Positions 1-31,825 of a stretch of DNA of 36,630 bases are shown here, piece by piece. Source of the DNA: Bryobacteraceae bacterium CoA2 C42. GTDB lineage: Bacteria; Acidobacteriota; Terriglobia; Bryobacterales; Bryobacteraceae. The stretch's first letter is position 1; the number at the start of each line of letters is the position of its first letter. The DNA lies in NCBI GenBank assembly GCA_019931245.1, contig JAINDL010000120.1, forward strand, positions 1 through 36,630. Direction: 5' to 3'. The notes under the pieces were generated by a model. It had not been told where the DNA came from. It was given only the letters and a program-made list of their open reading frames with translations, and searched no databases. Both the position numbers and the translations under genes were made by a program.

Positions 1-535
1 AGACCCGCCCCCTCTAAATCAGCGGTTTACAGATTGGTTTCTGGAGAGTTGACCACGTCGAAAACACCCATTGCCACGTGGCACGGCACGGCGAGCGTTG
101 GTTCATCACCCCCGCCGCAGGCTCATAAGTCCTTTCCTGGGTACGCGCGGGGGCGTTCTCATCCGCGCGGCGCGGCCGCGCGCCAGAAGGCCTCACTCGG
201 CGCAGATATCGCGGAATCCGCCTTCGATCCGGATGCCGCCAAGGCCGGGCTTCAGGACTCCGCCATGACTTATCCCGGGGCGACCACCAGCCCCGGTTTC
301 GACATCGACTATACACTTTCGGCAGTTCATCGACGGTTCGCTTCCGCTCGTCTCTCTGGACCTTACCTGATAGGATCAGGTCCCATCGTTTCCGCGACGC
401 TCACCACCATCGCTCTTAACGACAGCAACTCGCGGTGGTTTGAAGCCTGATCCTGATCTCCGGCTTCGAGGGGCCCGCCGGCATCTCTCTCACAGCCTGC
501 GCGACGGCATTGCTGCCGCCACGTTCTTGGCACAC
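1..535. other. No gene supported; probable mobile or decayed DNA
   Basis: No reading frame here has a convincing start, ribosome binding site or recognisable protein. An open frame at 34-450 (+) has biased, low-complexity composition and no family I recognise. The minus-strand frame at 14-316 is similarly unconvincing. The region leads directly into a decayed gene remnant, so it is probably the edge of a rearranged or mobile segment. I see no terminal inverted repeat that I could place with confidence. Confidence 0.5.
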
Positions 536-29600: not shown

Positions 29601-30074
29601 CTACCCCAGCAGCGTCTCGCGCACGCCCGCCCGCAGCGCCGTCACCACGTCACCGTCGGTTTCAAAAGCCAGCGCATACGGGGCCCGGCCTCCCACGACG
29701 AGTACCCGTCCGCGCGGGTCATAGCCGTGAGGCATCACCTCCACGCGGTTTCTGAAGATTGCCCGGATCTCCAACTCCAGGCTTCCCACCCGCCCACCGC
29801 CCAGCGTTTGCCACCGCCCCCCGGCCACGTCAATCCGCACAAGGCGCCCCTCGACAAGCAGAAGTCCGAGGTGCGGATCGCCCCATCCGGCATACACCGC
29901 CGAGCCCCGCGTCTCAATCCGCAGCGCTGCTCCCAACTGCCGCTGCAGCTGCGCCTCGCCCATGCCAATCCGCAGCCGCCCTATACCGTCGAAGCGAATC
30001 CGGTGGCGCGGCGATGGCGGGGCCGCAGTCAACGAACCGGCCGGCAGCGTCCACAGCAGCACGCGGCGCGTCAT
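29601..30074 (-). CDS. Small exported protein of unknown function
   Basis: A 157-residue protein beginning MTRRVLLWTLPAGSLTAAP, a twin-arginine-like but short signal peptide (RR at residues 3-4). The mature part is beta-rich: RIGMGEAQLQRQLGAALRIE recalls the 'GMSxxEVxxxLG' element of BamE/SmpA-like small outer-envelope proteins, but the similarity is only a short motif. The rest contains RGRVLVVGGRAPYALAFETDG, so a substrate or partner is not suggested. It begins eight bases after the stop of the AbrB-like gene and is probably co-transcribed with it. I do not recognise a named family. Confidence 0.6.
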   Translation of the reverse strand: MTRRVLLWTLPAGSLTAAPPSPRHRIRFDGIGRLRIGMGEAQLQRQLGAALRIETRGSAVYAGWGDPHLGLLLVEGRLVRIDVAGGRWQTLGGGRVGSLELEIRAIFRNRVEVMPHGYDPRGRVLVVGGRAPYALAFETDGDVVTALRAGVRETLLG

Positions 30075-30082
30075 GCCCCTGC

Positions 30083-30379
30083 TTAGGCCTGCACCGCCAC
30101 CCACATCCCCGGCCTTTCAGCGCGAATCGCCACGCGCTTGCCCTTCCAGGCGTTCATCTCGGCCGGCACCCGGATGGCGCCGTCTTTATCCACCGCCACC
30201 CGGCGCGAGATCACGCGAACCGGCAGCGGCAGCTCCCGCTCGCCCTCCCGGGTCACCACCCAAACCCCGCCGCCGCTGCGCGGCGCGACAATCACGCTGT
30301 AGAGGCCGCCGGCGCCCAAAGCGGCCGGCAGCGGCATCCGCCCTTGGGCGTCGATAGCGGTCTTCCACGGCTCTGACAT
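30083..30379 (-). CDS. Small protein with two AbrB/SpoVT-like half repeats
   Basis: A 98-residue cytoplasmic protein (no signal or membrane segment). Residues about 8-45 (AIDAQGRMPLPAALG) and 53-85 (VAVDKDGAIRVPAEMNAWKGKRVAI) are two copies of the swapped-hairpin pattern 'D..GRIxxPAxL....G', as in MraZ or tandem AbrB proteins, which bind DNA. The match is by pattern only. Its ATG is 12 bases from the ATG of the divergent selenoprotein candidate, so the promoters of the two genes must overlap the opposite coding sequences. It could regulate itself and that neighbour, which is inference. The ATG at 30377-30379 was chosen because the in-frame extension upstream to 30472 would read through the neighbouring gene. 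Confidence 0.62.
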   Translation of the reverse strand: MSEPWKTAIDAQGRMPLPAALGAGGLYSVIVAPRSGGGVWVVTREGERELPLPVRVISRRVAVDKDGAIRVPAEMNAWKGKRVAIRAERPGMWVAVQA

Positions 30380-30394
30380 AATCTTTAAAGTATG
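30379..30394. promoter_or_regulatory. Back-to-back start region with overlapping -10-like elements
   Basis: Two divergent ATG codons (30377-30379 minus, 30392-30394 plus) are separated by 12 A/T-rich bases, AATCTTTAAAGT. For the plus gene TAATCT (30379-30384) sits seven bases before ATG. For the minus gene CATACT (complement of 30389-30394) sits nine bases before ATG. Neither gene has room for a ribosome binding site, so both mRNAs should be leaderless or nearly so. Confidence 0.4.
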
Positions 30395-30748
30395 GCAACT
30401 TCCCGTATTGATTGGAGCTATCATCGGCCCGGCTGAAAAACCTGCGGCAAAACGCAGGAGTTTCTTGCGCACGCCGGCCTGTCCACGGCCTTACAAGTGG
30501 ACGCCAAAAAGCAGGCGATCGATCGCGCCGGAGCGATCGCGTTGGCCCGCCAGGCCGCGACCGTTTACGCCACCAAAGGCAAAAACGTCCTGCGGCTCGA
30601 CATGAAAACGAACCCGTCCGATGACGAGATCGCCGCGCTCGTCGTTGGCCCCAGCGGCAACCTCCGCGCCCCGGCGCTCCGTGTCGGCAAGACGCTGCTG
30701 GTCGGCTTCGACGAGGGGACTTACTCGACGTTTCTGAACCCTCCGTAG
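30392..30748 (+). CDS. Candidate selenoprotein: ArsC/glutaredoxin-like thioredoxin-fold protein with in-frame TGA (UxxC)
   Basis: Read through one TGA, this is a complete 118-residue protein. It begins MATSRIDWSYHRPG, then TGA (codon 15, 30434-30436), KTC (Cys18), then GKTQEFLAHAGLSTALQVDAKK. The second half has ALVVGPSGNLRAPALRVGKTLLVGF, the cis-Pro-containing end of thioredoxin-fold ArsC/glutaredoxin-like proteins, which in homologues begins with H-R-x-x-C-x-x-C. The TGA thus replaces exactly the first redox Cys, giving U-x-x-C. Both sides are in one frame with no other lesion, codon use is like the neighbours, and a SECIS-like hairpin follows. A plain nonsense mutation in a Cys codon (TGC/TGT to TGA) is the alternative. 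Start is 12 bases from the divergent gene, without a ribosome binding site. A conventional gene caller would report only an 83-residue fragment from 30497. Confidence 0.72.
30453..30469 (+). promoter_or_regulatory. Candidate bacterial SECIS element
   Basis: CGCAGG (30453-30458) pairs with CTTGCG (30464-30469), six pairs including one G-U, closing a five-base apical loop AGTTT. The loop begins 22 bases after the UGA and has G as its second base, both within the published bacterial SECIS consensus (loop 16-37 bases downstream of UGA, G among the first two loop bases). A competing perfect hairpin, CCTGCG (30441-30446) with CGCAGG (30453-30458), is closer to UGA and would be melted by a ribosome stopped there. 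Confidence 0.55.
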
Positions 30749-30758
30749 CCGGACCGTC

Positions 30759-31388
30759 CTACTTCGGCGGCGCCGTCTCTCCCTTCCGTTTCAGAGTCGG
30801 CGCCTTCCGCTTGGACTCCGCGGCGGCCTCTTTCTTCTCGGCCGCCTTCTTCTCGCCCAGCTCTTTTTCCCCCAGCAGCGCCTCGCGTTCCTTGCGCTCG
30901 TTCTGCTCCCGCGCCGCGAGTCGGCCGCCGCGCTCTTTGATGTCGGATTGCGCAATCTCGATCGAGTCATTCGTGGTCTCAAGCGCCGTATCGAGAACCA
31001 GTTCGTACCGGGCAAAGTCCTTCGGCGGCGCTTCTTTGATCCTGGTCAAGCGCTCGGCGAAAACCCGCTCGGCCTGGATCACCGCCATCAGTCCCTCATC
31101 GAGCGCCACCTTGCGCTTGATGGCATCATCGGCGACGGTGTCGGCCGCCTCGATAATCTTGGTGAACTCATCGAGCAGGTCATGCAGCAACGCGCTGCGG
31201 CCCGGCTTCTCGCGCTTGAGCAGGCTGTCCACCTGATCCATCCGCTGCTTGGCGAACAGCATGTAGAGGCGCAGCCGGGCGTTCGGCTCTTGCACCAGCC
31301 GCACCTGATCAACCTCATCAGCCGTCAGAAAATCCTTCTGCGCCGCAAGCGGCAGCAGCGCGCAAAGCAACACAACGGCCAGCCTCAT
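30759..31388 (-). CDS. Exported helical protein of unknown function (third gene of TPR operon)
   Basis: A 209-residue protein with a signal peptide (residues 1-16, ending LLPLAAQ) and an otherwise helical, charged sequence. Residues about 25-150 look like a four-helix arrangement (LRLYMLFAKQRMDQVDSLL, LHDLLDEFTKIIEAADTVAD). The last 60 residues are very rich in Lys, Glu and Ala (GEKKAAEKKEAAAESKRK), probably a disordered or coiled tail. I do not recognise a domain. Its ATG overlaps the preceding gene stop (ATGA), so the three genes 33030-30759 are translationally coupled and likely act together. Confidence 0.8.
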   Translation of the reverse strand: MRLAVVLLCALLPLAAQKDFLTADEVDQVRLVQEPNARLRLYMLFAKQRMDQVDSLLKREKPGRSALLHDLLDEFTKIIEAADTVADDAIKRKVALDEGLMAVIQAERVFAERLTRIKEAPPKDFARYELVLDTALETTNDSIEIAQSDIKERGGRLAAREQNERKEREALLGEKELGEKKAAEKKEAAAESKRKAPTLKRKGETAPPK

Positions 31389-31825
31389 CGGCGCACCCCC
31401 ATAGTCATGTCCACCAGTTCATCCTGCAGCCGCTCGACATAGGCGATCAACTCGTCCATCCGCGGCCGGTCATCAACGCCCAGCAGAGTCTGCAATCCCT
31501 TGAGCCGCCGGCTCAGCTCCCGCAGTTTCAACTCCGCCCGCTTGAAGTACTTGGGACTCCGGCGGGCGTCTTTCCCGGTGGCCTTCAGCGAGGCGACCGA
31601 CAGATCCACCGCCGCCCGAAACTCCTCCACCTCCGGCGCCACCGCCGCCCAGGTCTTGGTTTCGAGCTCCGGCCGCAGCCTCGTCAGCACCTCGCCCGCG
31701 TAGACCAGGGCCAGTTCGCTGCGGCGCTCGAGGTTGGCCTCAGCCTTGACGGCCTCAAGACCACCCGCGCCGGCGGCCGCGGCCGCCCCTACGACTAACC
31801 AAAGAGCGATCCAGCCGGGGTTCAT
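31385..31825 (-). CDS. Small exported helical protein of unknown function (second gene of TPR operon)
   Basis: A 146-residue protein with an N-terminal hydrophobic segment (about 4-22) that is either a signal peptide or a membrane anchor, followed by long amphipathic helices (LEAVKAEANLERRSELALVYAGEVL; RAELKLRELSRRLKGLQTLLG). It resembles the downstream protein in being all-helical, so the two may be distant relatives or partners. No family recognised. ATGA overlaps tie it to genes on both sides. Confidence 0.78.
   Translation of the reverse strand: MNPGWIALWLVVGAAAAAGAGGLEAVKAEANLERRSELALVYAGEVLTRLRPELETKTWAAVAPEVEEFRAAVDLSVASLKATGKDARRSPKYFKRAELKLRELSRRLKGLQTLLGVDDRPRMDELIAYVERLQDELVDMTMGVRR

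What the first reader, a model, noticed from the sequence alone, without database searches (positions are those of the whole stretch)
30392..30748. Candidate selenoprotein in an ArsC/glutaredoxin-like thioredoxin-fold family
A full-length family match is obtained only by reading through one in-frame TGA at the position of the first Cys of C-x-x-C, giving U-K-T-C. There is no other lesion on either side, and the second half keeps a conserved GPSGNLRAP segment. A SECIS-like hairpin at 30453-30469 has its apical loop 22 bases after UGA with G at its second position. A routine gene call would truncate this protein to 83 residues. The family with Sec at this position is not one I can name from the published selenoprotein lists.
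Basis: partly seen in the sequence, partly recalled or inferred. Interest (0 to 1): 0.88.

Follow-up and report, generated by a model that had tools for sequence, protein, structure and literature searches.

The report
Genuine selenoprotein of a listed family
The gene very probably inserts selenocysteine at an internal UGA codon, making a small thioredoxin-fold redox protein, but it belongs to a selenoprotein family that a database and a review already list.

Summary
The selenoprotein reading holds; the novelty claim does not. Window 30392-30748 (+) encodes 118 residues with one in-frame TGA (codon 15, U-K-T-C). It matches NCBIfam NF041106 "ArsC family (seleno)protein" end to end (128 bits, cut-off 85). 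A 2026 review lists that model as a UxxC selenoprotein family, citing a 2008 study. The genome encodes selA, selB, selD and tRNA-Sec. All 33 over-cut-off matches in 200 genomes of the order, and all 23 in 297 of the phylum (the window's counted in both), carry exactly one TGA. The hairpin at 30453-30469 is unremarkable alone but covaries across relatives, and its 3' arm uses CTT for Leu in 42 of 43 relatives against 24 of 316 other Leu codons. dN/dS after the TGA is 0.08-0.20. Function is inferred: a selenol-thiol oxidoreductase, probably not a classical arsenate reductase, since Ala replaces the Arg before the presumed cis-Pro in 59 of 59. No Cys form was met within the family, but other phyla were hardly sampled.

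The parts
30392..30748 (+). selenoprotein CDS, 118 aa with Sec at residue 15 (NF041106 ArsC_rel_Se_1)
   Evidence: translation with TGA=U; NCBIfam 128.1 bits, cut-off 85, profile 1-107 of 107
30434..30436 (+). UGA codon read as selenocysteine (Sec15), first position of U-x-x-C
   Evidence: one TGA in 33 of 33 and 23 of 23 over-cut-off matches (the window's own counted in both); at this codon in 59 of 59 distinct stretches examined
30443..30445 (+). codon of Cys18, the presumed resolving thiol of U-K-T-C
   Evidence: Cys in 58 of 59, Ser in 1 of 59
30453..30469 (+). bacterial SECIS-like hairpin, 7 bp with loop GUU, 23 nt after the UGA
   Evidence: 4 of 7 pairs with double-sided changes, 98.8% of cells paired over 23 distinct hairpins of one class
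30647..30673 (+). G86-P94 loop (GPSGNLRAP) with the presumed cis-proline P94
   Evidence: G86, G89, R92, A93, P94 the same in 59 of 59; that P94 is cis and near Sec15 is inferred from the fold family, not measured
30497..30748 (+). truncated 83-aa ORF that a standard gene call would report

Best explanation
The gene makes a real selenoprotein of the known family NF041106. The ribosome meets UGA at codon 15; SelB with Sec-tRNA(Sec), recruited by the hairpin 23 nt downstream, inserts selenocysteine, and a 118-residue protein with the glutaredoxin/ArsC/Spx fold results. Shown here by sequence evidence: the reading frame and its conservation, the machinery genes, and a hairpin under RNA-level constraint. 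Inferred: Sec insertion itself, and the chemistry, in which the Sec15 selenolate attacks an oxidised substrate (disulfide, sulfenic acid or oxyanion adduct) and Cys18 resolves it as a selenenylsulfide that cellular thiols reduce. A general thiol-redox role is more likely than arsenate reduction.
For: Family match 128 bits. selB 366.8 bits, selA 450.6, selD 355.6, tRNA-Sec 70.1 bits, all over cut-off in the same genome; tRNA-SeC anticodon tca. One TGA in 33 of 33 and 23 of 23 over-cut-off matches, and TGA in 10 of 10 loci of genome contigs, found with peptide patterns that leave out codon 15. dN/dS after the TGA 0.08-0.20 against 7 relatives. CTT in 42 of 43 against 24 of 316. 4 of 7 hairpin pairs with double-sided changes, 0 of 500 shuffles as many. 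selA in 27 of 27 genomes that have the family at 75 bits or more, against 192 of 297 overall (compared by eye). Spx chains are the best sequence and structure matches in the PDB.
Against: No direct proof of Sec insertion. In this sequence alone the hairpin is unremarkable (z -1.19; 4 of 60 synonymous shuffles), and its own energy of -7.1 kcal/mol falls just short of the review's -7.5 limit, although the 45-nt fold that contains it reaches -14.9. One of five covariation measures is not striking (further pair types, 48 of 500 shuffles). 16 of 59 distinct relatives do not have this hairpin class. No Cys homologue was met within the family. The redox function rests on fold and motif alone; Foldseek gave no PDB match at E <= 0.001 (best 1.2e-3), and four of the five models were of lower confidence (pLDDT 58.7-71.9).
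Confidence: 0.85

Rival explanations
1. Ordinary nonsense pseudogene: the TGA is a mutation and the protein is dead.
For: A single TGA interrupts the frame.
Against: One TGA in 33 of 33 and 23 of 23 over-cut-off relatives, purifying selection downstream (dN/dS 0.08-0.20), Sec machinery genes, hairpin covariation.
Confidence: 0.01
2. Selenium-dependent arsenate reductase: Sec15 forms an arseno-selenol intermediate in place of the ArsC cysteine.
For: Distant similarity to Pfam ArsC (20.7 bits); published names call such families arsenate reductase-like.
Against: Below the Pfam ArsC cut-off of 24; the equivalog arsC TIGR00014 is not among the 4 families listed for this protein. Ala in 59 of 59 directly before the proline, where the solved Spx relatives align Arg and where ArsC, from memory, has an arsenate-binding Arg. 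None of the 9 window ORFs scanned against Pfam is an arsenic gene; the other ORFs were not scanned.
Confidence: 0.1
3. Spx-like regulator: a redox-switch U-x-x-C protein that binds RNA polymerase.
For: Best PDB matches by sequence and by fold are Spx chains; Spx also carries C-x-x-C.
Against: TIGR01617 (Spx/MgsR) only 26.9 bits against a cut-off of 75.05; the fold match is only moderate (TM about 0.5). The RNA polymerase contact was not tested.
Confidence: 0.1
4. UGA is read as another amino acid or by general read-through, not as Sec.
For: Not excluded by any direct measurement.
Against: tRNA-Sec with tca anticodon and SelB are encoded, and the conserved hairpin has SECIS geometry.
Confidence: 0.02

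Closest known systems
NCBIfam NF041106 ArsC_rel_Se_1, 'ArsC family (seleno)protein' (PMC13188914: 'Arsenate reductase-like protein', UxxC)
   Same: Full-length match well above the cut-off; Sec at the first position of UxxC; small ArsC/Spx-type thioredoxin fold.
   Different: Nothing in kind; a further member from one more genome.
'Arsenate reductase 2' (cd03032, UxxC) of the GOS selenoproteome, PMC2398784
   Same: UxxC ArsC-type selenoprotein; the review cites this study for NF041106.
   Different: The GOS sequences were not compared here. The table counts 238 Cys homologues, whereas none was met here within NF041106. It may include the separate TIGR01617-type Sec proteins seen in L096-L105.
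Spx / MgsR (TIGR01617; PDB 3l78, 1z3e)
   Same: Fold and C-x-x-C position.
   Different: 26.9 bits against a cut-off of 75.05; Arg-Arg-Pro loop replaced by Arg-Ala-Pro.
Selenoprotein arsenate reductase form 1 (UxxS; PMC1088965, PMC2398784, PMC13188914 TIGR00014)
   Same: ArsC-type selenoprotein.
   Different: Motif UxxS and another model, which is not among the matches listed for this protein.

Membership tests
NF041106 ArsC family (seleno)protein | Score above the curated cut-off over the whole profile | tested here: met
   128.1 bits vs 85, profile 1-107 of 107; 120.6 bits in the genome search, which reads through stops
NF041106 ArsC family (seleno)protein | Sec or Cys at the first position of [UC]xxC | tested here: met
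   TGA at codon 15, Cys at 18
Bacterial selenoprotein | selA, selB, selC (tRNA-Sec) and selD in the genome | tested here: met
Bacterial selenoprotein | SECIS geometry: loop 3-9 nt, stem 4-16 bp, G in the first two loop positions, 16-37 nt after UGA (model as in PMC13188914) | tested here: met
   loop GUU, 7 bp, 23 nt; covariation
[quoted passage not shown]
   hairpin alone -7.1; 45-nt fold that contains it -14.9
Bacterial selenoprotein | Selenium in the protein | not testable with these tools
   needs 75Se labelling or mass spectrometry
Classical ArsC arsenate reductase | Score above the Pfam ArsC or TIGR00014 cut-off | tested here: not met
   PF03960 20.7 vs 24; TIGR00014 not listed
Classical ArsC arsenate reductase | Arg directly before the cis-Pro (feature recalled, not from a call) | tested here: not met
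   Ala in 59 of 59
Spx/MgsR regulator | Score above the TIGR01617 cut-off | tested here: not met
   26.9 vs 75.05
Spx/MgsR regulator | Binding to the RNA polymerase alpha C-terminal domain | not testable with these tools
   needs an experiment

The most novel reading that the evidence does not exclude
NF041106 is a Sec-obligate family whose chemistry Cys cannot do: no over-cut-off match in two genome samples lacked the TGA (33 of 33 and 23 of 23), while a sister Spx/ArsC-type subfamily of the same phylum has both Sec and Cys forms. Its conserved Y-x-R-x-x-U-x-x-C (last Cys in 58 of 59) and invariant R-A-P loop (59 of 59) would then define a substrate other than arsenate. Against it: other phyla were hardly sampled, and the 2008 table counts Cys homologues for the UxxC family that the review equates with it.
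Probability: 0.3. Interest if true: 0.4.

Novelty: new member of a known kind. Interest (0 to 1): 0.2.

Why it matters
It shows that a reader working from raw sequence recovered a real recoded gene that ordinary gene calling truncates. The family is already curated, but no test of its function turned up in the searches made here, and the lack of Cys forms in the samples searched gives a way to ask what Sec is needed for. The 43 distinct relatives with the same hairpin class are a useful set for studying SECIS constraint.

Tried and rejected
Pseudogene: rejected on conservation of the TGA and of the frame after it. Classical arsenate reductase and Spx membership: family cut-offs not met. Proof of the hairpin from this one sequence: insufficient; comparison across relatives was used instead. 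Rfam: no SECIS-type match in the window at gathering thresholds; the only match is a group II intron. Gene neighbours: tblastn of six flanking ORFs against 51 of the loci held, whose flanks are only 1.5-3 kb. The ORF at 29601-30104 recurs in L001-L007, 30083-30379 in L001-L005 and L007 (not L006), 30759-31388, 31385-31825 and the TPR ORF in L001-L007 and L094-L095, the kelch ORF in L001, L002 and L004 (plus the duplicate copies of these loci among L083-L091, some with shorter flanks); more distant loci gave no match. The four small ORFs reach no Pfam cut-off and match no NCBIfam model, so they give no functional clue. Cys forms of the family in other phyla: not searched, because the search centre I asked for was not accepted. 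Paper searches: ArsC + selenoprotein + Acidobacteria (2 papers), selenoprotein + NCBIfam + selenocysteine (1), two of arsenate reductase / selenoprotein families / bacterial selenoprotein (20), NF041106 (1), Acidobacteriota + selenoprotein + selenocysteine (3), 'ArsC family' + selenoprotein (0), arsenate reductase + selenoprotein + Spx + selenocysteine (0). Of PMC13188914 I saw passages and part of the reference list; of PMC1088965, PMC1794560 and PMC2398784 passages only; of the other papers listed, the search listing only.

Full report
Observation. The frame at 30392-30748 (+) is ATG to TAG with one TGA at 30434-30436, and translates to 118 residues with U-K-T-C at 15-18. A standard ORF listing gives, in this frame, only the 83-residue piece from 30497.

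Family. With Cys in place of Sec the protein matches NCBIfam NF041106.1 ArsC_rel_Se_1, 'ArsC family (seleno)protein', at 128.1 bits (cut-off 85) over the whole profile; Spx/MgsR TIGR01617 gives 26.9 bits (cut-off 75.05) and Pfam ArsC 20.7 (cut-off 24). The 2026 review PMC13188914 (passages seen) lists 'Arsenate reductase-like protein, NF041106, UxxC' and cites its reference 61, Zhang and Gladyshev 2008. That paper (PMC2398784, passages seen) tabulates 'Arsenate reductase 2, cd03032, UxxC', 42 selenoproteins and 238 Cys homologues. I did not compare the GOS sequences themselves, so the equation of the two is the review's. ArsC-like selenoproteins also appear in the tables of PMC1794560 (passages), and PMC1088965 (passages) has a UxxS arsenate reductase.

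Machinery. The window's genome (6.07 Mb, 237 contigs, 97.7% complete) has selB at 366.8 bits, selA at 450.6, selD at 355.6 and a tRNA-Sec at 70.1 bits, each over its cut-off. ARAGORN calls the tRNA SeC with anticodon tca. Its selD has an in-frame TGA of its own, so this genome probably makes at least two selenoproteins (inference).

Conservation of the UGA. Of 200 genomes of the order, 33 have an over-cut-off match and all 33 show exactly one TGA. Of the 14 genomes listed there as own or same genus, 13 have it; the other, a fragmented assembly (G421), has no match at all. Of 297 genomes of the phylum, 23 have an over-cut-off match and 4 more score 75-82 bits; all 27 show one TGA. The window's own genome is in both samples. 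Ten loci in named genomes, seven acidobacterial and one each labelled Planctomycetota, Zixiibacteriota and Gemmatimonadetes, all have TGA at the codon; the peptide patterns that found them leave out codon 15. Pooling the loci of these searches gives 66 rows, 59 distinct after merging duplicates, with TGA at the codon in 59 of 59. That pool holds only loci with a U, by selection: the three left out (L064-L066, 37-41 bits) have C-x-x-C and belong to another subfamily. After the TGA, dN/dS against seven relatives is 0.08 to 0.20: the second half is under purifying selection.

Co-occurrence. selA at E <= 1e-70 is found in 27 of 27 genomes that have the family at 75 bits or more, and in 192 of 297 overall (lists compared by eye; hypergeometric 3.8e-6). 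The figure is not corrected for kinship: 11 of the 27 come from one genus. selB, selD and tRNA-Sec were tested only in the window's own genome.

SECIS. Alone, the 45 bases from the UGA on fold at -14.9 kcal/mol with z = -1.19, 30 of 200 shuffles as good. The 7-bp hairpin alone has -7.1; 4 of 60 synonymous recodings reach that in the window, and 0 to 17 of 60 over the 37 sequences tested. So a single sequence proves little. Across relatives, 43 of 59 distinct sequences share this hairpin class at the same offset (class set by the loop and the two bases before it, not by the Leu codon); the 3' arm uses CTT for Leu in 42 of 43, against 24 of 316 other Leu codons of the same stretches. Over the 23 distinct 21-mers of the class, 98.8% of cells pair and 4 of 7 pairs change on both sides; 0 of 500 shuffles reach these two values or the covariation score, while 48 of 500 reach the count of further pair types; versions slid by 1-3 bases reach at most 68.9% pairing. 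Kinship is not corrected in the shuffles. The other 16 sequences (L048-L063) use other stems: the 12 of L048-L059 have a 7-bp stem and a 6-nt loop with G second; the last four are weaker. An eight-sequence alignment folded without a given structure yields the same 7 pairs.

Fold and function. AlphaFold2 on 11 sequences gives pLDDT 87.1 for the best model, although the other four models have 58.7-71.9. The closest solved relatives are Spx chains, by sequence (3l78, E 1e-4) and by fold (6gho, E 1.2e-3, TM 0.52; no match at E <= 0.001). In 59 aligned members Y10, R12, G63, G86, G89, R92-A93-P94, G99 and G105 are invariant besides Sec15, and C18 is Cys in 58 and Ser in 1. An Ala directly before the presumed cis-Pro, where Spx aligns Arg and ArsC, as I recall, also has Arg, argues against the classical arsenate site. 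I therefore favour a selenol-thiol oxidoreductase; this step is inference.

Verdict. Very probably a true selenoprotein gene, a further member of a curated and listed family. Not new as a kind; the open points are its substrate and whether Cys forms exist.

Noticed in passing
L096-L105 (e.g. L096:127-477); L065 1495-1833: A second ArsC/Spx-type group (L096 scores 81.9 bits with TIGR01617, over its cut-off of 75.05) has TGA at the matching position (U-T-T-C or U-T-S-C) in all 10 loci L096-L105, which were picked for showing a TGA, and Cys in L065 of a genome in the same genus as L096: a Sec/Cys exchange pair. The NCBIfam model that L096 passes names it a Spx/MgsR regulator.
   Followed up: partly
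L034 1441-2421: selD of the window's genome has an in-frame TGA (U31 of the stretch translated), so SelD is itself probably a selenoprotein.
   Followed up: partly
window 365-482 (-): Rfam group II intron D1-D4-2 match, 99.9 bits (gathering 36). ORFs of 180 aa or more were listed there but not scanned for an intron-encoded reverse transcriptase.
   Followed up: no
window 30083-30379 (-): 98-aa frame divergent from the selenoprotein gene if the inner ATG at 30379 is the start (the mechanical ORF begins at GTG 30472), 12 bases from the selenoprotein ATG; kept beside it in L001-L005 and L007; no Pfam or NCBIfam match.
   Followed up: partly
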